From positions 1 through 33,204 of IMG/VR virus record IMGVR_UViG_3300030102_000641: a stretch of 33,204 nt of DNA. One strand, given 5' to 3'. The position numbers were made by a program, and so were the translations under genes. Shown piece after piece: positions 5,121-29,643 of this stretch. A model generated the notes under the pieces. The model was not told the DNA's origin. It saw only the letters and a list, made by a program, of their open reading frames with translations, and made no database searches. This DNA comes from a virus. The number at the start of each line of letters is the position of its first letter. The first letter of the stretch is position 1.

Positions 5121-8100
5121 ATGAACGTTGGAGATGATATCAATATATACGGTGATGCTGGCGATGATGTTAGAATCACTGACAGATTTGGTAAAGTGGT
5201 TGAGTTTACAATACCTGATTGGGTTACGCAAAGAGGAGCGTATATCAACAGTGTAAGAGCAGGAAACGCACCTACAGATTATAAACCTGTATTGTCTGAT
5301 CTAATTGCACAAGGTATAGATACAAGTCAAGGAGTTGAGTTGCTTTCTGGTGTTGTTGGTTCTAACACTGACACTCGTGATTGGAGTAAAATCATGGAAT
5401 CTGGAGACGTTCTTGCGTCAGCTAGAGCAGCCACAGGTCAGATGTATTCAAACTCAGCAGCCACTGCAAATAATCTACTAAACTCAACTAATGAGTTTGA
5501 TGTGTCTCAAGCATCAGATGATGGTCCAAATTTAACAATAGGTGGTGGATATGATGGTCCATCAATTGTTAAACACAATATAGGTGGTAAAGAATATTTT
5601 GCTATTGTTTCTGCTGATGGTCTTGTATTAAGAGGAGCATATTCTACATTAGAATCAGCACAAGAGGCAGGTGTTAACTTTGGTGTTGATCAAGGTAAAG
5701 GAGATAACTTTTTAAAAACAGGTGTGAGAACTACTACTACTACAGATGATGTTGCATCAGCAGGTACAGATACAGACACTACAGATACCACTACTACTAC
5801 AGGTACAACAGGTACGACAGGTACAACAACTACAACAGGTACAACAGGTACGACAACTACAACAGGTACAACAGGTACAACAACTACAACAGGTATAACA
5901 GGTACGACAGGTACAGGTGTTACATTTATGGCTGGTCAAGGTCAGACACAATTAGATCAGGCACAGCAAGCATACGCTGATGCACAGAAAGCACTAACAG
6001 ATGCACAGCAAGCGTTTAACAATCTTACAGATCCATCTAACTTATACACTAACGTAGAGGAAGTTAAGCAAGGAGTTTTAAACAGCGACTATAATGCTGG
6101 CACAGACGGTGTTCAACAATCAGGTAAACAAACTACTGATATGAATAAAGTTCTGCAGTATATGTTTGATTACCCTGCTGTAAAATCGGATACTCCACTA
6201 GAGTTTAAAAAAATAGGTAGCTATTGGCACATCCTAGCGCCTTCGTTAGGTCCAGATTACAAATTTAACACAGGTCATAGAAATGAGAGTTATGCATTAA
6301 ATCAATTTAATATGTATAAAGCTATGATTAAAGGTGCTGAATCTGTAATTAGTACAACAGAAAAAGAGAGACTAACAAACGAGTATAATGCAGCACAACA
6401 AAATTTAACTAATGCACAAAACTTAATAACGCAGACCTACGGAGACTTACAAGCTGCAGAAGAGCGTATGAAGGTTACTGATATACCTAGCGTAGCAGAA
6501 TCTCTAGCACAAACAATAAGTTCACCTCAGACACTTGTGACTAAACAAGATGTATCTTTACTTCAAGTAGAAAATGGTCAGCTTATAGACAAAGGCACAG
6601 GTAAAGTAGCAAGTATAGATGACATCATTGCAGCACAAGCAACACTTGCAGATGCATTAAACTCACCATCAGTCAAAGCAGTTAGAGGTTATCTAGCTCG
6701 AATGACTCCAGAGGAAATAAACGCAAAGTATCCACCTGCTCCTGCAGGAACTAGTGAAGCAGATCTATTAGAGTATGTAGCTAGACAACAAGCACAAGTA
6801 TCACAGGATGCTACAGATGCAGCAGCAGCTATATACACTTCTTACATGTCTCAAGCAAAAGTTAAAACTGCACTAGAAGAGTTTGAAGCTAGAACAGGAA
6901 CACTATCCGAAGACGCTATAGCTAAAGCAGCCACTATGCCTCCAGAGGAGTTGGCACAGCTAGGTCTAGATGCAGCTAACTTAGAGACTATCAGAGAAGT
7001 ACAAGAGCTAACTAGAAACCTACAGGAAGGTGAACAGCCTGATCCTGCTAAGTTTGAGCAGATTGTAGAGGCTGAAGCAGAGCAGATTACAGAACCTGTA
7101 GAGGAAGTTGAGGCTGCTAAGTTTGCAACAGACACACCTATAGCCACACCTCAAGTTGATTACACATTACCACCTACACAGTCAGCTACTGCAGAGGCTA
7201 CACGAGTAGAGAATGCTGCAGAGTTTTCTGAGATAGCAAATGCACAACAAAAACAAACAGAGTTTGTACCTGACATAACAGCAGAACAAGCTACAGTTGT
7301 AGATGCAAATGAAATAGTAGATGTAAACAACATATTGAACACAGAGGAGATTGTCGTAACTGGACAAACACTCAGTGGACTAAACGAAGCAGCCACACTA
7401 AAAGCACAGACTGCTACATTTACACAACAGTTAGAGGCACAGTATACTAAGGGTGAAGTTAGCCCACAGTCTACAGTGTCTTTCCAACTAGAAAAACTTA
7501 TGGACTCTTTCAACGATGGCACACCTGCATGGGCTGCAGGAGCACTACGTAAAGTAAACGAAGTTATGAATGCTAGAGGTTTAGGTGCTAGTTCTATGGC
7601 AGGGGCAGCTATGATACAGGCTGCTATGGAGAGTGCCATACCAATAGCACAGGCTGATGCGTCTATCTTTCAAGCTATGGACATGGAGAATGTTCGTAAC
7701 AAACAAGCTGTAGCTTTAGCTAACGCTGCTGCTGCACAAAGGTTTGAGCTAGAAAACTTAAACAACCAACAAGCGGCTGCTATACAGAATAGCACTAACA
7801 ATGCTAATCTGCAGTTAACTAACTTGAGCAATACCCAAGAGGCTGTGTTAGCACAGGCACAACTAAGGGCAGGTCTAAGAAACCAAAACCTCAGTGTATC
7901 ACAAAACGTTGCTTTAGCAAATGCAGCTAGGTTTGCAGAAGTAAACAATCTAAACTTGACTAACAGACAACAGGCATCTATACTAGAGTCTACACAGGCA
8001 CTAGAAGTAGATCTTACAAACTTATCAAATGCCCAACAAACTGCGCTATCTAATTTACAAGTAAAAGCATCTATGATGGGTCAGGTACTGAGTAATGAGC

Positions 8101-9290
8101 AGCAGGTAGCTATACTTACAAGCACACAAGCATTTGAGACAGAGATGCAAAACGCTACAAACAAGCAACAGGCATTTATACAAGATGCTGTAGCTGCTGC
8201 TGCTATGCAAGGTAGAGTGCTAGATAACAGACAACAAACATCTTTGTTTAATGTGTCTAACCAAATCCAAGAGCGTGAAGCAGAACTAAACAATGAACAA
8301 CAGGTTCGATTGTTTAATATGACTAATAAGTTAAACATTGATGTAGAAAACTTATCTAACCGTCAACAGACTGCACTAGCTAATGCACAAATAGAAGCGG
8401 CTATGCGTGGACAAGAACTTACTAACGAACAGCAAGTGAATGTAATACGTGCAGATCGTATATCTGAGATAGCTAACTTACAGTTTACTGCAGATCAAAC
8501 TCGTGTGTTACGTAATGCAGAGTTAGCACAAACTGTGGACTTAACAAACTTAACCAACGATCAAGCTAAACTGTTAGCAGACGCAGCAGCACTAACACAA
8601 GTTGATGTAACTAATCTGTCTAATGAACAACAGGTAGCGCAACAGAAAGCCAATGCGTTTCTATCACTAGACTTATCTAACATTGACAAGCTACAACAGA
8701 TGGAGTTGTTTAAGGCACAAGAGTCCATACAAAGTATTTTTAGTGATCAAGGTGCAGCTAATGCAGCATCACAGTTTAATGCGTCTAGTCTAAACCAAAC
8801 TAGGCAGTTTATGATGAATCAAGATTCACAAATAGATATGTTTAACAATGCACAGATGAATGCTATGAATCAGTTTAACACAGGTGAGCTTAACTCTATT
8901 TCTAAGTTCAATCAAGAGCTACAAAATCAAAGAGACATGTTTAACGCACAGAACCAGTTAGTCGTAGCACAAGCTAACGCACAGTGGAGACAACAGATAG
9001 CCACCATAAACAATCAAAATATAAACGATGCTAACATGAGGGCTGCTGCTGTAGCTAACAACTTAACTGCACAAGGTATTGCAGAGTTGTGGCAACAAGA
9101 GCGTGATCTAATGAACTATGCTTGGACTACATCAGAGAAACAAGCAGACAGAGACTTTGAGTTAGTTAAAGCAAAAATAAATAACGATGCTGCTAGTGAC
9201 GCTGCATTTTCAGCAGCTACAGGTACGTTCTTATCTGCTGTAGTTGGCGCTGTTGGTGAAGCAGGTAGCATAGGTACTTTCTTTTCATAA
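5121..9290 (+). CDS. Large fibrous virion protein with Thr/Gly linker and 11/22-residue repeats
   Basis: 1389 aa. An N-terminal globular part (1-220) leads to a Thr/Gly-only linker (about 222-268) and a helical QQAY/DAQKAL segment. A mixed acidic middle follows, with NTEEIVVTG near 739. A conserved segment (GLGASSMAG to PIAQADA, about 815-845) precedes sixteen exact 22-residue repeats (857-1208, consensus NLSNxQQxALxNA) and further 11-residue units to about 1296. The last 30 residues are Gly/Ala/Phe-rich and hydrophobic. The NLSNxQQ type is familiar from structural proteins of marine phages. I infer a long helical rod in the virion; tail, fibre or ejection role is undecided. There is no catalytic motif. 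Confidence 0.8.
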   Translation: MNVGDDINIYGDAGDDVRITDRFGKVVEFTIPDWVTQRGAYINSVRAGNAPTDYKPVLSDLIAQGIDTSQGVELLSGVVGSNTDTRDWSKIMESGDVLASARAATGQMYSNSAATANNLLNSTNEFDVSQASDDGPNLTIGGGYDGPSIVKHNIGGKEYFAIVSADGLVLRGAYSTLESAQEAGVNFGVDQGKGDNFLKTGVRTTTTTDDVASAGTDTDTTDTTTTTGTTGTTGTTTTTGTTGTTTTTGTTGTTTTTGITGTTGTGVTFMAGQGQTQLDQAQQAYADAQKALTDAQQAFNNLTDPSNLYTNVEEVKQGVLNSDYNAGTDGVQQSGKQTTDMNKVLQYMFDYPAVKSDTPLEFKKIGSYWHILAPSLGPDYKFNTGHRNESYALNQFNMYKAMIKGAESVISTTEKERLTNEYNAAQQNLTNAQNLITQTYGDLQAAEERMKVTDIPSVAESLAQTISSPQTLVTKQDVSLLQVENGQLIDKGTGKVASIDDIIAAQATLADALNSPSVKAVRGYLARMTPEEINAKYPPAPAGTSEADLLEYVARQQAQVSQDATDAAAAIYTSYMSQAKVKTALEEFEARTGTLSEDAIAKAATMPPEELAQLGLDAANLETIREVQELTRNLQEGEQPDPAKFEQIVEAEAEQITEPVEEVEAAKFATDTPIATPQVDYTLPPTQSATAEATRVENAAEFSEIANAQQKQTEFVPDITAEQATVVDANEIVDVNNILNTEEIVVTGQTLSGLNEAATLKAQTATFTQQLEAQYTKGEVSPQSTVSFQLEKLMDSFNDGTPAWAAGALRKVNEVMNARGLGASSMAGAAMIQAAMESAIPIAQADASIFQAMDMENVRNKQAVALANAAAAQRFELENLNNQQAAAIQNSTNNANLQLTNLSNTQEAVLAQAQLRAGLRNQNLSVSQNVALANAARFAEVNNLNLTNRQQASILESTQALEVDLTNLSNAQQTALSNLQVKASMMGQVLSNEQQVAILTSTQAFETEMQNATNKQQAFIQDAVAAAAMQGRVLDNRQQTSLFNVSNQIQEREAELNNEQQVRLFNMTNKLNIDVENLSNRQQTALANAQIEAAMRGQELTNEQQVNVIRADRISEIANLQFTADQTRVLRNAELAQTVDLTNLTNDQAKLLADAAALTQVDVTNLSNEQQVAQQKANAFLSLDLSNIDKLQQMELFKAQESIQSIFSDQGAANAASQFNASSLNQTRQFMMNQDSQIDMFNNAQMNAMNQFNTGELNSISKFNQELQNQRDMFNAQNQLVVAQANAQWRQQIATINNQNINDANMRAAAVANNLTAQGIAELWQQERDLMNYAWTTSEKQADRDFELVKAKINNDAASDAAFSAATGTFLSAVVGAVGEAGSIGTFFS
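5826..5906 (+). repeat. 27-bp minisatellite encoding a Thr/Gly linker
   Basis: Three consecutive 27-bp units at 5826-5852, 5853-5879 and 5880-5906 differ by one to three bases. They are flanked by degenerate 9-bp subunits (ACAGGTACR-type) from about 5787 to 5923. All units are multiples of three, so copy-number change keeps the frame. Confidence 0.85.
7689..9008 (+). repeat. Coding repeat: 16 x 66 bp, then 33-bp units (hendecad array)
   Basis: Translated residues 857-1208 divide without gaps into sixteen 22-residue units with N or a similar residue at position 1 and Q at position 6. The register continues as 11-residue units, many with N at position 1 and F at position 11, to about residue 1296. 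The DNA copies have diverged, so the repeat is clear mainly at protein level. Confidence 0.85.
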
Positions 9291-9301
9291 GGTAAAATAA
9301 A

Positions 9302-10753
9302 ATGGCTGAACAATTAGGATTAGGTGAAATAATCAAAAACTTCTTGGGTATTGGGCAAGAGGATAAGGAACCATCAGGTGCTGTAACTTCAAGTCTACGT
9401 CCTAAAGCTAGACCTGAGGGGTTGATGGCAAGCACTGTCAAACCTAAGATCAGACCTGAAGATGATGACGATGATGACAAACCAACTGACCCGATATCAG
9501 CTACTACAAATACTATTACCATGATGAATAACTATGACGATAGTGAGGATGAGGATCAAGGTGTTGAGTTAGACAGTGCTAGTCTGCAAGAGCTACTAAT
9601 AAACCCAAACTCTCTGTATGATAAACACAGCACTACTGTAAGAAGACTTTCTAGATTTGGTAATGAAGTGCCGAAAGTCATGCAACAAAAGTTAAAATCT
9701 CCAGTAGTAAATGATTTACTAGTTGACGTAACAGCTATGTTAGCTAAAGAACAGTCGGCAAGTAAACCACCAGAACCTGAGATGTTTGTAGATCCTATTC
9801 CTGAAGAGCCTGTAGAGTTAAACAATAAACAAATACAACAGAAGCTAGTTGATGCAGGTTACAATATTAAGGTAGACGGTATCATAGGTCCACAAACAAA
9901 GAAAGCCATAAAAGCTTTTCAAAAAGAAAAAGGTTTAAAAGTTGATGGTATAGTAGGTAAAAACACAACAGCAGCGTTAGTAGGTGTACCAGAGATTACT
10001 TCAGAGTCAATAGGTAAAGCTCCAGAAGTAGAACAGAAAACTCAAATGGAGTTACTGTCTGAACGTTCAGGTTTAATGTCTCCTGTGATCACAGACAAGC
10101 CAGTAGAAATAGTTGAGGCTGGTTTTTTAAGTGGTATTAAAAATACTTTTAGAGATTTGTTTAATTATTATGCTTCTGCTGAAGGGCAAGCAAAAACACT
10201 TATAGCTGCAGCACCTTTAGCAGAAAAAATATTACCTATAAATGCAGCTAAATTTGCAGAGTTTTTAGGTAATAATGGTCAAATAACTTTAACATCTGAA
10301 GATTTAACTAAAAAAGATTATAACTATCTAAGAAAAAAAGCTATAGAAGTTATTGAAAGAGGAGATGACAAGTTTGATTATCCAGATTGGGGCTTTGAAG
10401 AAAAAAGTGTTTTAGTTCAGGATTTAACAAAAACTGCTTGGGGTTCTTTAAAAGATCCTGCGTTTAGAATGGCTACTCTTATAGGGCAAACAGCGCCAGG
10501 AAATGTAAGAATAGAAAACGGAAGAGTGGTAGTAGAAGACGTGTACGATTTTAATACAGGTCCACTAGGGCGTAAATTACAAAAAGCATTTGAGTTAAAA
10601 GACAAAGGAGACGAAGAAGGTTATGAAAAACTGTCTTCAGAAGCTTTGAAAAACAGAGGACACTTAGAACAACTAAGAATATGGGCTGCAGCTTTGGGAG
10701 TGCCTCAAGGTGAGGGAACTAGATTTATACTTGATTTAGGAGAAGCGCCATGA
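9302..10753 (+). CDS. Virion protein with peptidoglycan-binding domain
   Basis: 483 aa. The N-terminal 160 residues are disordered and low-complexity, with an RPKARPEGLM motif near 33-42 and a run of six Asp near 54. Residues about 174-228 form a PG_binding_1 (PF01471) domain, with the usual IQQKLVDAGY, VDGIIGPQT and AFQKEKGLKVDGIVG features. A second GLMS motif lies at 257-260. The C-terminal 210 residues are a globular domain I do not recognise. No lytic catalytic domain is present, so this likely anchors a virion part to the cell wall, while the muramidase is encoded separately at 13421. The stop overlaps the next ATG (ATGA). Confidence 0.8.
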   Translation: MAEQLGLGEIIKNFLGIGQEDKEPSGAVTSSLRPKARPEGLMASTVKPKIRPEDDDDDDKPTDPISATTNTITMMNNYDDSEDEDQGVELDSASLQELLINPNSLYDKHSTTVRRLSRFGNEVPKVMQQKLKSPVVNDLLVDVTAMLAKEQSASKPPEPEMFVDPIPEEPVELNNKQIQQKLVDAGYNIKVDGIIGPQTKKAIKAFQKEKGLKVDGIVGKNTTAALVGVPEITSESIGKAPEVEQKTQMELLSERSGLMSPVITDKPVEIVEAGFLSGIKNTFRDLFNYYASAEGQAKTLIAAAPLAEKILPINAAKFAEFLGNNGQITLTSEDLTKKDYNYLRKKAIEVIERGDDKFDYPDWGFEEKSVLVQDLTKTAWGSLKDPAFRMATLIGQTAPGNVRIENGRVVVEDVYDFNTGPLGRKLQKAFELKDKGDEEGYEKLSSEALKNRGHLEQLRIWAAALGVPQGEGTRFILDLGEAP

Positions 10754-11193
10754 TGGGATTACCACTAGAACTAATTACTATGCTTTTTTCTACCGTGTTA
10801 GGTGGGGTCATGTCTATATGGGGTCAGTCCATAAAGGCTAGAGAAGCTAATAACAAGATGCTTTTACAACGTGCTAACTTTAGAAAAGAAGCCGTGGCTG
10901 AAGCACGTAACGCTGGCAAAGATGACAAACACTTTGCTTGGACTAGAAGATTAATAGCATTAGGTGCAGTATTTAGTATTATTGTCTTGCCAAAGCTAGT
11001 CGCAGTGTGGTATCCTGATGTCAGCGTTTATGTAGGATATACAGAAGCAACTGGTGGTATTATGAACTGGTTGTTTGGGCCAGATGAAGCTATACAGTGG
11101 AAAGTGGCTAAAGGTTTTGTAATCACACCATTAGATACACACATCGTATCAGCCATAGTAGGATTATACTTTGGCGCTGGGTTTACTAAATAG
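10750..11193 (+). CDS. Three-helix membrane protein, holin-like
   Basis: 147 aa. Hydrophobic helices lie at about 4-22, 66-86 and 128-145, with a basic helix (about 27-60) between the first two. Size and topology resemble the 3TM holin family described for gene-transfer agents (PF11351). Similar proteins starting MGLPLELITM occur in marine phages. Holin function is inferred; a virion membrane protein is the alternative, given its position among structural genes. Two adjacent in-frame ATGs (10750, 10753) are possible starts; the first overlaps the preceding stop as ATGA. Confidence 0.7.
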   Translation: MMGLPLELITMLFSTVLGGVMSIWGQSIKAREANNKMLLQRANFRKEAVAEARNAGKDDKHFAWTRRLIALGAVFSIIVLPKLVAVWYPDVSVYVGYTEATGGIMNWLFGPDEAIQWKVAKGFVITPLDTHIVSAIVGLYFGAGFTK

Positions 11194-11202
11194 GAAAAGA
11201 AA

Positions 11203-11808
11203 ATGGCAGTATCAGATTTTGGAGCACCAATACCAGGAAACTCTTTGTTTACACATGCGCCAGGTGAGCGTCCGTGGGAGCGTCCTGTAGACATAGATAA
11301 GGTAGAGGATGCTATAAGTTATTACATGACAAGTCTATCTCAAGAGGATATCATGGATGATCTGATGGTAGCCATAGAAGCTGGCGTAGCTATCAATCCA
11401 ATATCTGAGGCTATAACTTTGTCACAGGTTATGAGAGGTAAACACAACCTAGACGTAGCCTTATTAGTAAAACCTGTAGTCATGGAGTTTTTAGCTGCTG
11501 TTGCTGAGAGCAATGATATTGATTATAAGTTTAGTAATAAAGATCCACAAGCAGAACTAGATGCAAGAGAGAGAAGCAGAGTGCAGATGATTCTACAGGG
11601 TGCTTTGACTAAAGCAAAAGAAGAAGGTGGTGAGGATGCAGGTACAGCACTATTAGGTGAGATATCAGAGTTCCTTGAAAGAGATGTAAGTCGAGATGAA
11701 GTGATGGAAGCGCAAGATATGCCAGCGCCAGAACCAGAAGACATACAACAAGTTAACGAGCCACCAGCAGAGGCTCCACAAGAAATGGGCCTGATGGCTA
11801 GAAGGTAG
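11203..11808 (+). CDS. Conserved marine-phage structural protein
   Basis: 201 aa. The start MAVSDFGAPIPGNSL is one I recognise from a protein conserved in marine myophages and related phages and annotated there as virion structural. The middle is helical. The C-terminal 45 residues are acidic and Pro/Glu-rich and end EMGLMARR, a GLM motif also found in two neighbouring virion proteins. An AGGAAAAG site precedes the ATG. No enzymatic motif was found. Confidence 0.75.
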   Translation: MAVSDFGAPIPGNSLFTHAPGERPWERPVDIDKVEDAISYYMTSLSQEDIMDDLMVAIEAGVAINPISEAITLSQVMRGKHNLDVALLVKPVVMEFLAAVAESNDIDYKFSNKDPQAELDARERSRVQMILQGALTKAKEEGGEDAGTALLGEISEFLERDVSRDEVMEAQDMPAPEPEDIQQVNEPPAEAPQEMGLMARR

Positions 11809-11814
11809 GTTACT

Positions 11815-13407
11815 ATGGGATTTGATCCAAAGGCATTCGCTGCAGCGTTTATGGAAGATCAGGCAAGGCAGATTAACACAAGAGTTGCCGAAGCCAGAGA
11901 GTATAAACGAGAGCTAAAAGAAGAAGCAGATGCAGGTAAGTCTAAGATAGCTCAACTTAGGCAGCTAGGTAACTTAGCTAAGTCTGAGATAGCAAGACTG
12001 AGGGCGCTAGGCTTTGAAGATAAACACATCAATGCAGCTATTGCGTCTGGACCTAAAGGTTTGTTTGACTTGTCTGTGTCTGCTCAAGAAGAAGCGGCAA
12101 GACGTAACTTTACATCAGGACAAAAGTTTGATGAATATGAGATAGAATCTTTGATAGACTTCTCAGAGAACTTTGCGTATGGGGATGTAGATTCGGAGGA
12201 GTTCTACCAGATGAACACTGCTCTTACTGATCCATCACTAGGTAGTACCAAAGACCCACAAAGAGGTCTAATGAAAACTATATTCGGTATTGACTTAGAT
12301 GATGCAGTAAGAGCAAAACTAGACAAAGATGCTTTCTATGATGGTTACTCTGTTATGGATATAAACGAAATATCTAAACAGGAGACTTACGATAGCGTTG
12401 CACCTGGCACATACTTCTCATTTACACCTACACGAGACTTTGATCCAACAAGTGCAGCATCTGCTTTCAACAGAATGATTAACACGATAGACTCACAGGT
12501 TCAAGATAACAGAGATAGCGGTAAGTATTTAAGACAAGCAGAACTAGCTGCACGAGGAGATCCAGATGCAGATATCCAAGCATTAGCTATGGAGTTTGCT
12601 ACAAAAGATAAACAACAAATGCTTTTTAATCAGATATCAATTACATCACAGGGTGATCCCACTTATGTAAATAGGATGCGTCCTTTACTAGAAGATGCTG
12701 GTCTTAGTCAAGATCAGATAGGAGAGCTAGAGTACGGTAGTTTAGATGATGAGGCGTTAGAAAGAAAAGTAGTTAGTGACATACTAAAAAACAAACCATC
12801 TATATCTACCGACATTGAAAATAAATTTAGTGTGATGAGTAACGGTGTCAGACATGAAATAATTATAGGCACAGATAAAAAAGTAAAAAGTTTAATAATA
12901 GGTGGACAAACTGTTCCTGAAGAACAAGTAGATGATTTGTTAAAAGATATGGCTGTAAAAGGTTTGATACCAAGTGTGCAATTAACAGGTGATGAGGTTT
13001 CTGCGCCAGAGTCAATAGAATCAGATCAAGACTTTTCACCACCAGCAATTGATAAAATTAAAGTGCCACCTAGACCAAATGCTTTTACTAGTAGATTTAC
13101 TGGCGTTTCACTAGATTATGAAACAAGACAGCAGATACTAAATCAAGAGATAGATGTGCCTGATAATTTAAGAGTTGATGAGTGGGATGAACTATTTGGT
13201 GACACACATGACCCTGAAACAGGAAGACCTCTTTCTTCTTCACAAGAGATAGATGAAACAGAAACAGTGCGACAGACAGGTACAGAAGATAATCCAGTGG
13301 ATTTAAAAAGTATGAGTAGAGAAGAGGCAGAGGAGGCGTATGCTAAACTTAAAGTTGGTGAGTATTTTATTAATCCTGCTGATGGTAGGGTACTTCCTAA
13401 ACGGTAA
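11815..13407 (+). CDS. Virion structural protein, conserved in marine phages
   Basis: 530 aa. The N-terminal 75 residues are a charged, coiled-coil-like helix, followed by a largely helical body with segments such as RGLMKTIFGIDLDDAV. The last 130 residues are Asp/Glu/Pro-rich and probably extended. It resembles large helical structural proteins encoded beside the MAVSDFG protein in other marine phages, but I cannot give it a precise function. The stop lies 14 bases before the muramidase ATG. The next frame is also open from 13340 but lacks ribosome-site support there. Confidence 0.75.
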   Translation: MGFDPKAFAAAFMEDQARQINTRVAEAREYKRELKEEADAGKSKIAQLRQLGNLAKSEIARLRALGFEDKHINAAIASGPKGLFDLSVSAQEEAARRNFTSGQKFDEYEIESLIDFSENFAYGDVDSEEFYQMNTALTDPSLGSTKDPQRGLMKTIFGIDLDDAVRAKLDKDAFYDGYSVMDINEISKQETYDSVAPGTYFSFTPTRDFDPTSAASAFNRMINTIDSQVQDNRDSGKYLRQAELAARGDPDADIQALAMEFATKDKQQMLFNQISITSQGDPTYVNRMRPLLEDAGLSQDQIGELEYGSLDDEALERKVVSDILKNKPSISTDIENKFSVMSNGVRHEIIIGTDKKVKSLIIGGQTVPEEQVDDLLKDMAVKGLIPSVQLTGDEVSAPESIESDQDFSPPAIDKIKVPPRPNAFTSRFTGVSLDYETRQQILNQEIDVPDNLRVDEWDELFGDTHDPETGRPLSSSQEIDETETVRQTGTEDNPVDLKSMSREEAEEAYAKLKVGEYFINPADGRVLPKR

Positions 13408-13420
13408 GGATTTTAAAACT

Positions 13421-14020
13421 ATGGTTAATGATATAGACTTTTCTGGTAGAGTTACAGCTAAGAATGACATAGACTTCTCTGCTAGAGTTACAGATACACC
13501 GGTTGGTTTGATGTCTCCAAAGAAAAAACCTACATGGCAAAATACTGTATATGATCTTGTGTCTGATAAAATTGGCGTAAACAAAAACACATGGGATATA
13601 TACAGAGAAGAACTAGCTAAGATAGAATCAAGAGGATCTGGCAACTATCACGCAAAGGGTGGGGCTAACGATCACTATGATGGTAGGTATCAGCTAGGTA
13701 AAGATGCTAAAATAGATGCTGCTAGATTGCTAGGACTAGAGCTACCGCACGATGCTAAATCTCGTGAAAAATTTAGAGGCAATGTAGACTTACAAGAAAA
13801 AGCGTTTGCTGCTTATACTGCTCAAAATCATAGATACATGATGGTGTCACCTGAGTACAGAAAGTTATCAAAGGAAGGTAAACTAGCAGCACTAGCATAT
13901 GCACACAATCAAGGACACGGTAAAGCTAAATCGTGGTTGAAGACAGGTAAAGTTACTAAGGATGGCTTTGGAACTCCTGGCACTAAGTTCTCTGACGCAT
14001 TAAAGGCAGCACTAAAATGA
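13421..14020 (+). CDS. SLT-type transglycosylase / muramidase
   Basis: 199 aa. I choose ATG 13421 because AAGGA lies ten bases upstream; the frame is open from 13340 inside the previous gene. A lytic transglycosylase-like domain spans about 58-175. E69 in KIESRGSGNY is the expected catalytic acid, followed by GGANDHYDGRYQLG and the late AYAHNQGHGKA motif typical of SLT folds. The first 25 residues contain a tandem NDIDFSxRVT repeat, then VGLMSPKKKP. There is no signal peptide. Lying between structural genes, it is more likely a virion-borne wall-opening enzyme than the final endolysin, though it could serve as both. ATGA overlap with the next gene. Confidence 0.85.
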   Translation: MVNDIDFSGRVTAKNDIDFSARVTDTPVGLMSPKKKPTWQNTVYDLVSDKIGVNKNTWDIYREELAKIESRGSGNYHAKGGANDHYDGRYQLGKDAKIDAARLLGLELPHDAKSREKFRGNVDLQEKAFAAYTAQNHRYMMVSPEYRKLSKEGKLAALAYAHNQGHGKAKSWLKTGKVTKDGFGTPGTKFSDALKAALK

Positions 14021-17000
14021 CAACACTAAATGATTTTTATAAAGAGTATGGTATAGAAACGGATGCGTCTAAAGACATAGATAGTAGTGTGCCTGAGTAC
14101 AGAGATAACACACAGTTTGATGACATGTTTGAGTCTGATACTCGTGAGGGAGAAAAATTAAAGAAGCAAGACTTGTACAGAAGAGACAGGCTAAACAAAA
14201 TACGTAACTATATGATAGGCAAGAAGGGTGCTGCATACAGGACAGCCAAAGCTGAGACTGTAGTAGAGGACTTTGTAGATAGTATGCGTAGGTTTAACAC
14301 TAACATAGTCGCAACTGCAGGTGAAGCTAGATATATTTCCAAAGCTGATGATGAAACTAAAAGAGCAGCAAAAGAAGCATACGAGTTGTATGACAGTTTA
14401 GGCAATGTCTTTGTAAATGATGGTGTGTTTGGGGCTGTGGATGGTGTCAAGGATTACATCCTAGCCGTAGCAACTGATCCTACAAACTACTTAGGCTTAG
14501 TGACAGGCTTTGCAGGTAAAGCTGGTGCGTTGGGTGTGAGTGAGGCTAGTAAAGCAGCAATAAAAAATGCAGTAGCAGCAGCAGCTAGGAGAGCAGCACA
14601 GTCTGGTGCAACTAAAGAAGCAGCTAAGAAAGCTGGAGATGAAGCAGCAGAGGCTATGATCAAGAAACTTACTGGCAGTGGCTACACAAAAGCATCCATG
14701 ACTAGGGCTGCTGAGAGTGCGGCAAAAGCAGCCAGAGCAAAGGTAAGATTTGAGGCTGGACGTAGGGCAGCTAGAAGAGCAACGATTGAGGGCGGTGAGG
14801 TAACTCTTACAGAGGGTAGACTAAAACCACGTACTATAAAGTTTGGTATGCAACAAGCTGGTAAGAAAGCAGTGCTACAGACTACGGCAATTGACTCACT
14901 ACTTGCTGGCTATCAAGATGTAGCCATACAGGATCTGTATTTAGATGTAGGTGCTCAAGAAAAGTACAGCGCACTACAAACTGGTTTATCTCTAGCTTTG
15001 GGTGGTGTTGCTGGTGGGTTACACTACACATTCGGTAAAGCAGATGGTTTGTCTGGATTTGCAGAAGCAGCAGACATGGCTAGAGCAGGAACAAGAGGTG
15101 AAGAGTTCCCTCTTAAAAAATTTAAAGCTGCAAAAGAAGAACTAAAAAAGTTAAAACAAAGCGGTGCAGACAAGGCTACAATAAAAAAACAACAACGGCT
15201 AGTTAACAAACTGCAAAGTGAAGCAATAGGTAAACCACTACTAGCTAAAAAATCTATAGACAAAGCAGCTAGTGAGATGAAAGATGCTATCAAGTCGTGG
15301 GGAGAAAAGGTAAGATCTGGTAAAGAAGAGTTAGCCAAAGGTGAGGGAAACCAGATAATGCCTGAGAGTTTGCTTAGTCAGATAATGTTGGGCTACACAA
15401 CTGCAGACAAAGCAGCATCAAAAGGTCCAATGCCGATTGGTGGTTTAGCAAAGATATTTAATGAGAATGGTATTAAGTTTTCAAAGAAAACAAAAGTCTC
15501 TGATGTTATGACAAACTTGCTTCAGTACATGCCAGAGGAAGAACTCAAAGAAATATCAAAGTTATTTAAAAAAGAAACAAGTATAGACTTGGGAACCACT
15601 GCTACTCTTGCAGTAGATTTAGGTGACATAATAGCAGCCACTACAAGTGGAGCAGGTAGCACTCTTAGCGTGATGGCGGCTGTCAGAAGAGCCACAGATG
15701 CAGGTGTTGTGTCAGGAAATGAGATACTCGCAACAGCACTTGAGCAAAAAGAAGTGAGAGACACTTTAGAAAAAGAAGGTATACTTGGCGTAACTAAAAG
15801 AGCCAAAGGATTAGGCTACGCACAAAACGTATGGAAAAGATTACTTGTGTCATCCCCTGCTACAACTGCAGCTAACGTGGCTGGTTTCGCACAGTTCTAT
15901 GGTGGACAAGGTGTAGCTGATATATTTGCATCAGGTCAGTTGTATATAGCTGGAATAGGTGCAGCTAGTGTGGGTAACAAAGAACTAAGCCAAGAGCTAT
16001 TCAGAAAGTCTCGTGTGTATCGAAGCATACAGACACAAAAAATGAAAAACTTTCTTGATCCTCTATCTACCTACGAAACTTTTGTAAGTTTAATGGATGA
16101 CATAGGTGATAACAAAGAGTTTAAAGGATTGTTGTTTGAGACTATTGGTGGTGGGGTAGAGAGAACTGCTAAAAGATATAACGTTGATGTAAACAATCCT
16201 GTGATTAAAAACGCAGAGATATTTGCTGACGCTTCTATGACAATAACTGGTGTTCGCATACAAGATACGTTTACTAAATCTCAAATGTTTATGACTGAAC
16301 TAGATAAGTATGTCAGACTAAAGCATGACAAAAATTTAATTGATGTGTTAAAGTCTGGTGATCTTGCAATGTTAGACGATGATGTGATAGGTGGCGCAGT
16401 AGATACCACACTACGATCTGTGTTTTCAAAAGATTATACAACAGATGATCAGTATTTAGGTGCTGTGGCTAGGGCTGTGGAACAAGCCTCTAACACACCT
16501 GTGTTGGGTACTGTTATACCTTTTGGTAGATTTATGAACAACGTTGTGGCAACAGCTTATCAGTGGAGTCCGTTAAGCTTTGCTGGAGTTGCTTCACGTA
16601 TTTATAAAAAAGAACCTGGTATAAAAACAAATGAAGCTTTTGCTCGTTCACTAGTAGGTACAACTGGTTTGGTTTTAGCTATGCAATTGGATGATGAGAG
16701 ACAGAAAAAAGGTTTAGGGGTAAACGAAATAGAAATGAGTGGAACTGTGATGGATGTCAGAAACGTGTTTCCATTCTCGTTGTTCTTAGTTGCTGGAAGA
16801 GTTGGTAATCTTACTGCAAAAGGAGAGACTGTTCCTCCTGAACTAATAGAAGAACTAGGTAATCAGTTAGCCATTGGACAAGTTGCAAGAGACTTACAGT
16901 TTGGTAATGACGTGTTTAACGCAATAGATTTCTTTTCTAGTGGGGGAAGAGGGGCAGATCTGGATGCATTGTATAAGTCATTAGGTAACGTGGCTGCTGG

Positions 17001-17703
17001 TGCAACACGTCCTCTTGACGCTCTCAACAGATCTATAGGTTTCTTAGCAGACAATGATGTAGCAAAAGATGTTAGACAGGCTGACGGTTTTTTACCAGTG
17101 TTTACACAATCATCTACTAAATACTTTGATAATATATTGGAGGCTTTGATAGGAGAATCAGAAACTCTTACAGGTGAAAACTTACGTGTAAGTAGCAGAG
17201 AGGGTGACATATATGACGCCAACCCACTAGCTCGTATACTAGGTCTAAACATTAAAAGAGGTAAGACAGCTACAGAACAAGCATATACTCTAGCAAATCT
17301 ACAGTCATGGAAGCAAGATCAAAGATCTAACATACCTACCTATGATAGATTGTTTAATGCAGGGCTTGCACCCATGTTAGAAAAACGTATGCAGGTGTTG
17401 TTGTCTAGTAAAAGATTTCAAGATGGTGATTTGGAGTACAAACGAGGCAGGGTAAAGTATGAACTTAAAAAAGCTAGGGATCAGCTACGAGACTACTTTG
17501 ATATTCCTGGCAGTTCAGCTTATTTAGATCAACAAAGATATAGAGCGTCCACCAAAGGAACTAAAGCACAGCAGAAAAAAGCTATGCGTTACATGGAAAG
17601 TTTGGGTGTAGATGCAGAACTGAAAGACTTTAACTTTAGAGAGTTAAAAACTTACGAGTCTTACATAGATCATCTTAATTTGAAAATCAAAACTGGAATG
17701 TAG
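14017..17703 (+). CDS. Giant internal virion / DNA-ejection protein
   Basis: 1228 aa, last gene of the plus block. A polar N-terminus precedes an Ala/Lys/Arg-rich helical region (about 175-270) and a long helical body. Several Gly/Ala-rich hydrophobic patches lie near 610-660, 830-865 and 880-895 and could insert into a membrane. Size, position after the muramidase and composition parallel the large ejection proteins of T7-like phages (gp15/gp16), but I see no direct sequence match, so the role is inferred. The ATG overlaps the muramidase stop. A terminator-like hairpin follows the TAG stop. Confidence 0.75.
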   Translation: MTTLNDFYKEYGIETDASKDIDSSVPEYRDNTQFDDMFESDTREGEKLKKQDLYRRDRLNKIRNYMIGKKGAAYRTAKAETVVEDFVDSMRRFNTNIVATAGEARYISKADDETKRAAKEAYELYDSLGNVFVNDGVFGAVDGVKDYILAVATDPTNYLGLVTGFAGKAGALGVSEASKAAIKNAVAAAARRAAQSGATKEAAKKAGDEAAEAMIKKLTGSGYTKASMTRAAESAAKAARAKVRFEAGRRAARRATIEGGEVTLTEGRLKPRTIKFGMQQAGKKAVLQTTAIDSLLAGYQDVAIQDLYLDVGAQEKYSALQTGLSLALGGVAGGLHYTFGKADGLSGFAEAADMARAGTRGEEFPLKKFKAAKEELKKLKQSGADKATIKKQQRLVNKLQSEAIGKPLLAKKSIDKAASEMKDAIKSWGEKVRSGKEELAKGEGNQIMPESLLSQIMLGYTTADKAASKGPMPIGGLAKIFNENGIKFSKKTKVSDVMTNLLQYMPEEELKEISKLFKKETSIDLGTTATLAVDLGDIIAATTSGAGSTLSVMAAVRRATDAGVVSGNEILATALEQKEVRDTLEKEGILGVTKRAKGLGYAQNVWKRLLVSSPATTAANVAGFAQFYGGQGVADIFASGQLYIAGIGAASVGNKELSQELFRKSRVYRSIQTQKMKNFLDPLSTYETFVSLMDDIGDNKEFKGLLFETIGGGVERTAKRYNVDVNNPVIKNAEIFADASMTITGVRIQDTFTKSQMFMTELDKYVRLKHDKNLIDVLKSGDLAMLDDDVIGGAVDTTLRSVFSKDYTTDDQYLGAVARAVEQASNTPVLGTVIPFGRFMNNVVATAYQWSPLSFAGVASRIYKKEPGIKTNEAFARSLVGTTGLVLAMQLDDERQKKGLGVNEIEMSGTVMDVRNVFPFSLFLVAGRVGNLTAKGETVPPELIEELGNQLAIGQVARDLQFGNDVFNAIDFFSSGGRGADLDALYKSLGNVAAGATRPLDALNRSIGFLADNDVAKDVRQADGFLPVFTQSSTKYFDNILEALIGESETLTGENLRVSSREGDIYDANPLARILGLNIKRGKTATEQAYTLANLQSWKQDQRSNIPTYDRLFNAGLAPMLEKRMQVLLSSKRFQDGDLEYKRGRVKYELKKARDQLRDYFDIPGSSAYLDQQRYRASTKGTKAQQKKAMRYMESLGVDAELKDFNFRELKTYESYIDHLNLKIKTGM

Positions 17704-27882: not shown

Positions 27883-28723
27883 TGGATTTTGTTTGTTTGT
27901 GTGACTTTTTTGCAACATGTATCCATTCTCCTATCTGTTCTATATCTTCTGGGTCTTGATACTTTACATCATCACGTAATCTTATTGCTCTTGTAGGTAT
28001 ATCACACCACGCTTCTATCTCCTTACGCATGACCAAAGTTTTCCTTAGTGCGTCTGGATCAAGTGCAACCATAACATAGTTAGCGTTATCGCTCAAGCAT
28101 TCTTTGTGTGCATCTGTCAGGCTTGTACCTAATAAAGCAAAACCTGTGACATCTGGGTATACCTTTGCGACAGTTACTGCACTGATTACGTCCTCTACTA
28201 CAATGTAGATACCGTTAGGCTCACCGTAGCAATACTTAGCGTACTCTGCTGCACCACCGTAGCGTAACCACTTGGGCTGCTTACCGTCCAGTGCTCTTCC
28301 TATTGCATCTACTATAAGTCCATCATTGTAGATAGGAAACACTGCACGTTTATCTTTAAGATCGTACAGTAACTCTATGTTTTCTAAGGGATTTGCGTAC
28401 TCGCCTACCCAGCGCATACGAAATCTGTTTACATATTTGTTACTTACGTCAGTTGTTACATGTTCTGGATAAACAAAGTGCTCTAACCTCTTGTTTATAT
28501 TACCTGTTTCGATCAGAGGTGTTACTAGATAGTGCTCTAGTTCATCCTTTGCTATGCCTGTATTAGTGTATCCACTCACGTCACACGATACCTTATAGCA
28601 GTTGTAAGCAATGCAACCATTACGTTTGGTAGCAGTGAAAGTATTCTTACCTTTACATCTAGGGCAGTCCTGTCTGATAGTTTGACCCTCAGATATGTCT
28701 AAGCTATTGATATCTATAAACAT
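27830..28723 (-). CDS. DNA primase, T7 gp4 primase-like, not fused to helicase
   Basis: 297 aa. An N-terminal zinc finger (C20, C23, C42, C47) recognises the priming site in this family. A TOPRIM core follows, with E177 (VVEDVISA) and D222/D224 (LDPDA) as expected metal-binding residues. A basic C-terminal tail (after about 270) replaces the helicase domain found in T7 gp4. AAGGAT precedes the ATG, which shares one base with the recombinase stop. It should make RNA primers and must contact the helicase (25525) as a separate protein. Confidence 0.92.
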   Translation of the reverse strand: MFIDINSLDISEGQTIRQDCPRCKGKNTFTATKRNGCIAYNCYKVSCDVSGYTNTGIAKDELEHYLVTPLIETGNINKRLEHFVYPEHVTTDVSNKYVNRFRMRWVGEYANPLENIELLYDLKDKRAVFPIYNDGLIVDAIGRALDGKQPKWLRYGGAAEYAKYCYGEPNGIYIVVEDVISAVTVAKVYPDVTGFALLGTSLTDAHKECLSDNANYVMVALDPDALRKTLVMRKEIEAWCDIPTRAIRLRDDVKYQDPEDIEQIGEWIHVAKKSHKQTKSNGEGGKTIKVQTTSSTR

Positions 28724-29643
28724 TATTTCTTATCCTTGAATGCCTGGCGTTGGGCTAGTGCTTCTGATGCACCAGTGTATGTGTGTTTGATATAAGGAGT
28801 CAAGCTATTTATGTTAGTGTGTCCACTTACTTGTTTGATCTGTGTTATATCTACACCAGCTTCTACCATCTCAGTAATAGCTGTACGCCTCATGTCCATA
28901 GCTGTAAGATGTCGAGGTAGCCCAGCAGCTTCTAGTATTGCATTGACATAAACGTGTAGCATCTCTTTACTGTAGGGCTTGTATGCACCGTCACTAGGGT
29001 AAACCTGTGGTGTCACTAAAACTTGGAAGCCAAACGTTTCGTGCTGTTGCTTGAGCACATGCATCAATGGATCACTGATAGGTAGGTGTACCTCTGCTCC
29101 ACGCTTGCTCTGCTCTAAGTCACAACGCTTCTTGTCAAAGTTGATAGCTGCCCACGTAAGCATACGCATATCACCTACACGTTGCCCCCACTCGTAAGCC
29201 ATCTGTACAATCAAGCCAATGCTACGCCACTTCCACTCGCTGTATGCTGTGTGTAAGAACTGGTTTACTTGCTCTGGCTCCCACATTACTTTACGTGGTG
29301 GATTGGGTGTCTTCTCTAACAAAGGCATAGGGTTTTCCATACTGATGCCATTCTTCTTAGACCAGTTGATAAGTATCGACATGATTGCAGCTATCTTGTT
29401 TGCTCTGTATGTACCTCTCTTTAGCCACAGATTGTAGCACTGTTGCATTAAAGACACACTTAGTCTCTTCATGCTTGTAGCACCTATGTCATCATTTATA
29501 ACCATGAGACAGTCGTAGTAATCCTTTTGAGATGCAGAGCCTAGCTTGCAAAATGTATCTGACTTTATGTAGTAACCTATGACCTCCTCTACTCTGTAGC
29601 CTTTACCTTGTTTGAATATTGTCTTTTCTTTTGTCATTAGCAT
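28723..29643 (-). CDS. int: Tyrosine recombinase / integrase with altered active site
   Basis: 306 aa. A SAM-like N-terminal domain (to about 110) is followed by the catalytic domain: R155 (WGQRVGD), K180 (QSKRGAE), R252 (MDMRRT), H275 (SGHTN) and nucleophile Y284 (TPYIKHT). The usual first histidine of the HxxR box is Met249 here. Likely role: site-specific integration, or resolution of genome multimers. AAAGG precedes ATG 29643; ATG 29637 is also possible. The N-terminus overlaps a 41-aa gene by 41 bases. No repressor or excisionase is visible in the window and no attachment site could be identified. Confidence 0.9.
   Translation of the reverse strand: MLMTKEKTIFKQGKGYRVEEVIGYYIKSDTFCKLGSASQKDYYDCLMVINDDIGATSMKRLSVSLMQQCYNLWLKRGTYRANKIAAIMSILINWSKKNGISMENPMPLLEKTPNPPRKVMWEPEQVNQFLHTAYSEWKWRSIGLIVQMAYEWGQRVGDMRMLTWAAINFDKKRCDLEQSKRGAEVHLPISDPLMHVLKQQHETFGFQVLVTPQVYPSDGAYKPYSKEMLHVYVNAILEAAGLPRHLTAMDMRRTAITEMVEAGVDITQIKQVSGHTNINSLTPYIKHTYTGASEALAQRQAFKDKK

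What the first reader, a model, noticed from the sequence alone, without database searches (positions are those of the whole stretch)
7689..9008. Unbroken 11/22-residue repeat predicts a long hendecad rod in a virion protein
Residues 857-1208 split without any insertion or deletion into sixteen 22-residue units. The same register continues as 11-residue units (many N...F) to about 1296, some 440 residues or 40 hendecads. Hendecad periodicity is known from right-handed or straight coiled coils. At 0.15 nm per residue one helix would be about 65 nm long. The strict phase, with diverged sequence, implies structural selection; the likely product is a rod, ruler or ejection conduit rather than a globular protein.
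Basis: partly seen in the sequence, partly recalled or inferred. Interest (0 to 1): 0.62.

Follow-up and report, generated by a model that had tools for sequence, protein, structure and literature searches.

The report
Phase-locked hendecad helix in marine podophages
A family of proteins in abundant marine viruses of bacteria carries a proline-free helical stretch that evolution lengthens and shortens almost only in whole steps of 11 amino acids (from about 154 to 792 residues in the copies seen), as if building a rod or DNA-delivery tube of adjustable length; its actual role in the virus is still untested.

Summary
ORF 5121-9290 (1389 aa) holds sixteen 22-residue units (857-1208), then ten 11-residue units (to about 1318): 42 hendecads. 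The window is a fragment of an HMO-2011-type podophage. In 260 homologous ORFs the repeat has 17 lengths (anchor to anchor 175-813 aa); 259 share one remainder modulo 11, while the N-terminal part and C-tail of the same proteins show no phase. A tree needs at least 28 length changes; one single-residue insertion in one contig is the only off-phase case. In the window's branch the first zone steps by whole 110-aa cassettes (12 to 62 hendecads). The repeat has no proline in 71,930 residues (6% elsewhere) and 30% Asn+Gln. This argues for a continuous 11/3 helix under structural selection. AlphaFold2 (monomer) gave helix at low confidence, so neither a single rod nor an oligomer is shown. Best reading: an internal, ejected virion protein forming an amide-rich helical conduit or rod, physically like the phiX174 H tube but without sequence homology. 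Virion location is inferred from synteny only. A tail-length ruler is disfavoured (a relative's tail is about 9 nm).

The parts
5121..9290 (+). Repeat protein P0001, 1389 aa, homologue of HMO-2011 gp25, CRP-1 gp35, HTVC103P gp59, phiM6_25, MQM1_018, CHOED_013
   Evidence: ORF; tblastn and loci
5733..5930 (+). Thr/Gly low-complexity linker in the variable N-terminal part (residues 205-270)
   Evidence: sequence
7344..7364 (+). TonB-box-like EEIVVTG (residues 742-748), conserved in the window's own clade only
7443..7676 (+). Conserved N-terminal anchor, residues 775-852 (...PAWAAGA...ARGLGASSMA...PIAQADA...)
   Evidence: profile found in the 260 homologous ORFs used
7689..8744 (+). Zone A: sixteen 22-residue units = 32 hendecads (residues 857-1208)
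8019..8348 (+). 110-residue cassette, units 6-10 (residues 967-1076): absent in the 22-hendecad class, present in four copies in the 62-hendecad class
8745..9074 (+). Zone B: ten 11-residue units, Phe at the 11th place of the first six (residues 1209-1318)
9075..9287 (+). C-terminal helix with anchor (W1324...D1329) and weakly hydrophobic tail (residues 1361-1379)
9302..10753 (+). 483-aa protein with peptidoglycan-binding domain (endolysin-like)
   Evidence: PF01471 1e-17, phrog_2649
11203..11808 (+). 201-aa conserved 'APIPG...GLMAR' protein, downstream of the repeat gene in the relatives examined
   Evidence: 234 blastp hits among ORFs of the fetched loci
11815..13407 (+). 530-aa protein, position and size of a gp15-like gene
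   Evidence: synteny only
14017..17703 (+). 1228-aa largely helical protein, position and size of a gp16-like gene
   Evidence: synteny; low-confidence helical model

Best explanation
Residues 857 to about 1318 form one continuous alpha helix with an 11/3 (hendecad) repeat, about 69 nm if straight. Several copies of the protein are carried in the virion and, during or after ejection, pack side by side through two hydrophobic seams into a long Asn/Gln-rich rod or tube that extends the very short tail toward or through the host envelope, for the genome to follow. SHOWN here: the repeat, its 11-residue phase across at least 28 length changes with one off-phase exception, the complete lack of proline, the amide-rich composition, the 110-aa cassette steps, and the conserved gene block. 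INFERRED: continuity of the helix, oligomerisation, virion location, and the conduit role.
For: Phase: 259 of 260 homologues have one remainder mod 11 over 17 lengths of 175-813 aa; zone A is a multiple of 11 in all 260 and of 22 in 258; zone B is in phase in 259; at least 28 changes on a tree. Controls: 164 distinct N-terminal and 48 distinct C-tail lengths in the same proteins are spread over all remainders mod 11. No proline in 71,930 repeat residues of 231 distinct homologues, against 6.0% in the rest; Asn+Gln 30%. Hydropathy period 3.71 residues per turn; the phiX174 H tube region 151-271, computed the same way, gives 3.74, Asn+Gln 26%, no proline. The H tube is a decameric helical tube lined by amide and guanidinium side chains, with three hendecads at its start (PMC7354561). 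Two hydrophobic seams, positions 2/10 and 8, lie on roughly opposite sides of the wheel, which suits a helix between two neighbours. Gene order: repeat protein, about 165-200 aa, about 370-650 aa, then a very large protein, after the coat and tail genes; ejection genes are described as gp14-like, gp15-like, then a larger gp16-like gene (PMC8954989). The N terminus varies and the C terminus is conserved, the reverse of usual tail fibres (the fibre rule is general knowledge). One homologue (CRP-3) matches phrog_6121, 'virion structural protein', E 3.6e-13.
Against: AlphaFold2 of 775-1389 has low confidence (mean pLDDT 51.4, pTM 0.19) and puts short breaks at some 22-residue boundaries. No sequence similarity to phiX174 H, T7 gp14 or any solved chain. 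No proteomics seen for any relative. A hydrophobic C-tail is present in only part of the family, so a membrane anchor is not general. The longest class (72 hendecads, about 119 nm) exceeds a periplasm and a 70-nm head, so at least there the helix cannot be straight inside the head. Which face would line a lumen cannot be decided from the wheel (seams about 164/196 degrees apart).
Confidence: 0.5

Rival explanations
1. External fibre or tail appendage: the hendecads form a dimeric or trimeric coiled-coil shaft with polar Gln layers in its core (position 6 of alternate hendecads).
For: The 3-4-4 core at positions 10, 2, 6 fits a hendecad coiled coil; Gln at position 6 of the first hendecad of each 22-mer is nearly invariant in zone A. 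The gene lies just after tail-fibre genes in HMO-2011. Shaft length varying by cassettes is plausible for fibres.
Against: No C-terminal receptor-binding domain in the window protein: it ends about 65 aa after W1324. The conserved end is the C terminus and the variable end the N terminus. A second hydrophobic seam at position 8 is not needed for a simple coiled coil.
Confidence: 0.2
2. Internal head protein that stays in or near the capsid: core scaffold, portal-associated rod, or genome-organising protein, not ejected.
For: Isolated HMO-2011-type relatives have genomes of about 53-57 kb whatever the repeat length, so the protein could fill or organise space. Low charge and an amide-rich surface could suit contact with packed DNA.
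Confidence: 0.2
3. The 22-mer is a helix-turn unit (about 16-residue helix plus a turn at 'NLSN'), stacked as a solenoid or bundle, not a continuous rod.
For: AlphaFold2 breaks helices at several 22-residue boundaries; positions 2-7 read L-[S/T/N/D]-N-x-Q-Q, like a helix N-cap box; zone A is a multiple of 22 in 258 of 260.
Against: No proline and 1.4% glycine in the repeats, whereas turns should use both; two homologues have an odd number of hendecads in zone A, and zone B steps by 11; AlphaFold2 confidence around the breaks is about 40-50.
Confidence: 0.15
4. The phase is a by-product of mutation: repeats change length only by unequal recombination, without structural selection.
For: Units 6 and 11 are 71% identical in DNA at a spacing of five units, which could explain the 110-aa cassettes; the 62-hendecad class holds near-identical tandem cassettes.
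Against: Ordinary small indels abound in the flanks of the same genes (164 and 48 distinct lengths) but only one off-phase case in 260 is seen in the repeat; mean unit identity in the window is only 0.42 in DNA and 0.28 in protein.
Confidence: 0.1

Closest known systems
phiX174 DNA pilot protein H (tube, PDB 4JPP)
   Same: Long helix of about 3.7 residues per turn with hendecads, Asn/Gln-rich, proline-free; in H it makes a DNA-conducting tube.
   Different: H has 3 hendecads followed by heptads over 121 residues; here 42 hendecads (14-72 in the family). No sequence similarity. Different virus realm.
T7 internal core / ejection proteins gp14, gp15, gp16
   Same: Short-tailed phage; block of genes after the tail genes with increasing sizes ending in a very large one.
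   Different: No detectable similarity of the repeat protein or the 201-aa family to gp14, or of the 1228-aa family to gp16. T7 gp14 is 196 aa and makes a helical hairpin after ejection (PMC11784390).
DEV gp72/gp73 (Schitoviridae ejection channel)
   Same: Ejected helical proteins forming a tube about 30 nm long (PMC10925440).
   Different: No 11-residue repeat array is described in the passages read; the profile search of solved chains gave no match.
HMO-2011 gp25 and relatives (annotated hypothetical; 'huntingtin' in ctYwJ313)
   Same: Same protein family with both anchors, the repeat and the gene order.
   Different: HMO-2011 has 12 hendecads in zone A, the window 32.

Membership tests
HMO-2011 gp25-like repeat proteins | N-terminal anchor (PAWAAGA..RGL..SS....PIAQ.DA) and C-terminal W anchor on both sides of the repeat | tested here: met
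   profiles match window and homologues
HMO-2011 gp25-like repeat proteins | Position before the APIPG, ~500-aa and very large genes, then RNR on the other strand | tested here: met
Hendecad (11/3) coiled-coil proteins | 11-residue sequence period over many turns | tested here: met
Hendecad (11/3) coiled-coil proteins | Solved or confidently predicted coiled coil of two or more helices | tested here: inconclusive
phiX174 H-type DNA pilot tube | Sequence homology to H | tested here: not met
   hhalign probability 0.2%
phiX174 H-type DNA pilot tube | Oligomeric tube conducting DNA | not testable with these tools
   needs an experimental structure
T7 gp14/gp15/gp16 ejection proteins | Sequence homology | tested here: not met
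   (single T7 sequences against profiles; gp15 not compared)
T7 gp14/gp15/gp16 ejection proteins | Gene order small, medium, very large after tail genes | tested here: met
T7 gp14/gp15/gp16 ejection proteins | Present in virion and ejected into the envelope | not tested
   no proteomics found in the passages read
Tape-measure (tail-length ruler) proteins | Repeat length matching a long tail | tested here: not met
   MQM1 tail 9.2 nm although its anchor-to-anchor repeat distance is 219 aa

The most novel reading that the evidence does not exclude
A tube or rod built wholly of hendecads whose length is quantised: phages of one large marine group set it from about 23 to about 119 nm by adding or removing whole 11-, 22- or 110-residue cassettes without breaking the helical phase, perhaps to match host envelope or surface layers.
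Probability: 0.35. Interest if true: 0.8.

Novelty: new variant of a known kind. Interest (0 to 1): 0.6.

Why it matters
[quoted passage not shown] If the reading holds, it is a natural series of hendecad helices of graded length, useful for learning how short-tailed phages cross the envelope and for coiled-coil design, and it gives a clean test of whether repeat length follows host.

Tried and rejected
Pfam, PHROGs and NCBIfam give no family for the repeat protein itself. The solved-structure search gave one chance hit (E 1.9). AlphaFold2 of the repeat and of the 1228-aa neighbour were both of low confidence, so no fold search was run on them. A membrane-anchor argument from the C-tail was dropped as not general. 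The lumen face was not assigned: the wheel is nearly symmetric. A lipid-binding 11-mer (apolipoprotein-like) was considered and set aside, since charge is low (29 K/R and 41 D/E in 462 residues) and hydrophobic residues lie on two sides. The first regular-expression anchor test gave two false off-phase cases and four failures, corrected by profile anchors. The single off-phase contig L142 has one extra residue in zone B; its tblastn match spans 2107 bases, not a multiple of three, so an assembly error is possible but not proven. A scan of bacterial genomes found no relative of P0001.

Full report
The window is a fragment of an HMO-2011-type podophage. Structural genes run on the + strand and end with a 1228-aa gene; class II ribonucleotide reductase, Cas4-like exonuclease, DNA polymerase, helicase, integrase and methyltransferase follow on the minus strand. 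The same order is seen in Puniceispirillum phage HMO-2011, Roseobacter phage CRP-1, Sinorhizobium phage phiM6 and, for the structural block, Pelagibacter phage HTVC103P.

Check of the observation. The ORF at 5121-9290 encodes 1389 aa. Residues 857-1208 split into sixteen 22-mers and the register goes on as 11-mers to about 1318. Identity at lag 22 is 0.256 against a maximum of 0.174 in 2000 shuffles over all lags. The two halves of the 22-mer differ, so lag 11 is weaker.

Homologues. tblastn found 21 phage records with the window protein and up to 27 with more distant members. Six scans of viral contigs plus the phage records gave 260 ORFs with both anchors. The distance from the Pro of 'PIAQ' to the Trp of the C-terminal anchor, taken from profile columns and not from the repeats, has 17 values: 175, 186, 197, 208, 219, 252, 263, 318, 351, 352, 373, 395, 461, 483, 593, 703 and 813. 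All but 352 (one contig, L142) leave the same remainder mod 11.

Splitting at the junction 'SDQAAENAA.QFNA': zone A is 2, 4, 6, 8, 11, 12, 18, 22, 28, 32, 42, 52 or 62 hendecads (whole 22-mers in 258 of 260 cases); zone B is 8, 9, 10, 12, 13, 14 or 21 hendecads plus five residues. A tree from the non-repeat parts needs at least 23 changes in zone A and 7 in zone B, 28 jointly. Control: N-terminal and C-tail lengths of the same proteins, and the neighbour's, are not tied to any remainder.

Cassettes. In the large branch that holds the window, zone A is nearly always 2+10n hendecads. Unit profiles show that the 22-hendecad class equals units 1-5 plus 11-16 of the 32-hendecad class, and that the 62-hendecad class is the 32-hendecad class with units 6-10 present four times. 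Units 6 and 11 of the window are the most alike in DNA, 71%. Recombination between them would add or remove exactly five units; this is inference.

Helix character. There is no proline in 71,930 repeat residues of 231 distinct homologues, against 6.0% elsewhere; glycine is 1.4%, Asn+Gln 30%. Hydropathy has a period of 3.71 residues per turn across the family. The wheel has hydrophobic positions 2 and 10 (with a conserved Gln at 6 between them) and, on the other side, 8. The phiX174 H tube region measured the same way gives 3.74, 26% Asn+Gln and no proline. H is a decameric DNA-conducting tube lined by amide and guanidinium groups, with three hendecads and then heptads (PMC7354561).

Structure prediction. 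AlphaFold2 on 775-1389 with 56 sequences gives only helix, with mean pLDDT 51 and pTM 0.19: unbroken at 825-919 and 1259-1380, with short breaks at some 'NLSN' sites between. This neither confirms nor refutes a single rod. The large neighbour is also of low confidence.

Function. No relative has proteomics in the passages read. Position and sizes of the following genes resemble the gp14/gp15/gp16 order described for podophages (PMC8954989), without sequence similarity where tested. Heads of about 70 nm and very short tails are reported for relatives, so a tail ruler is unlikely. At 0.15 nm per residue the window's 42 hendecads would be about 69 nm, the family range about 23-119 nm. The longest cannot lie straight in a 70-nm head, which fits assembly after release better than a straight internal rod. 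The conduit reading is given 0.5; a fibre, an internal core protein and a helix-turn solenoid are the main rivals.

Noticed in passing
window 7344-7364 (residues 742-748): EEIVVTG, like the TonB box of outer-membrane receptors, lies upstream of the repeat and is conserved as EEIVVTG/A or close variants in the window's clade, absent from the other length classes tested; could be chance or mimicry.
   Followed up: partly
window 28723-29643: Integrase gene (phrog_1); DNA similarity to integrase genes of Roseobacter phages CRP-1, -2, -207, -345 and -603.
   Followed up: partly
window 13340-14020: 226-aa endolysin-like protein (phrog_5867, 5.7e-44) with an N-terminal hydrophobic segment, overlapping the end of the 530-aa gene; a 147-aa protein with three hydrophobic segments at 10750-11193 could be a holin.
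   Followed up: no
L106, L080, L077 and other 263-class relatives: Extra C-terminal domain 'CWVAREVYG...WL...P.W...Y..HGE' after the repeat protein's tail, absent in the window.
   Followed up: no
L173: Zone B expanded to 21 hendecads with strict N....N....F 11-mers, while zone A stays at 6.
   Followed up: no
window 11203-11808: 'APIPG...GLMAR' protein family, 234 blastp hits among ORFs of the fetched loci, near the repeat gene where checked; no family or solved structure matches.
   Followed up: partly
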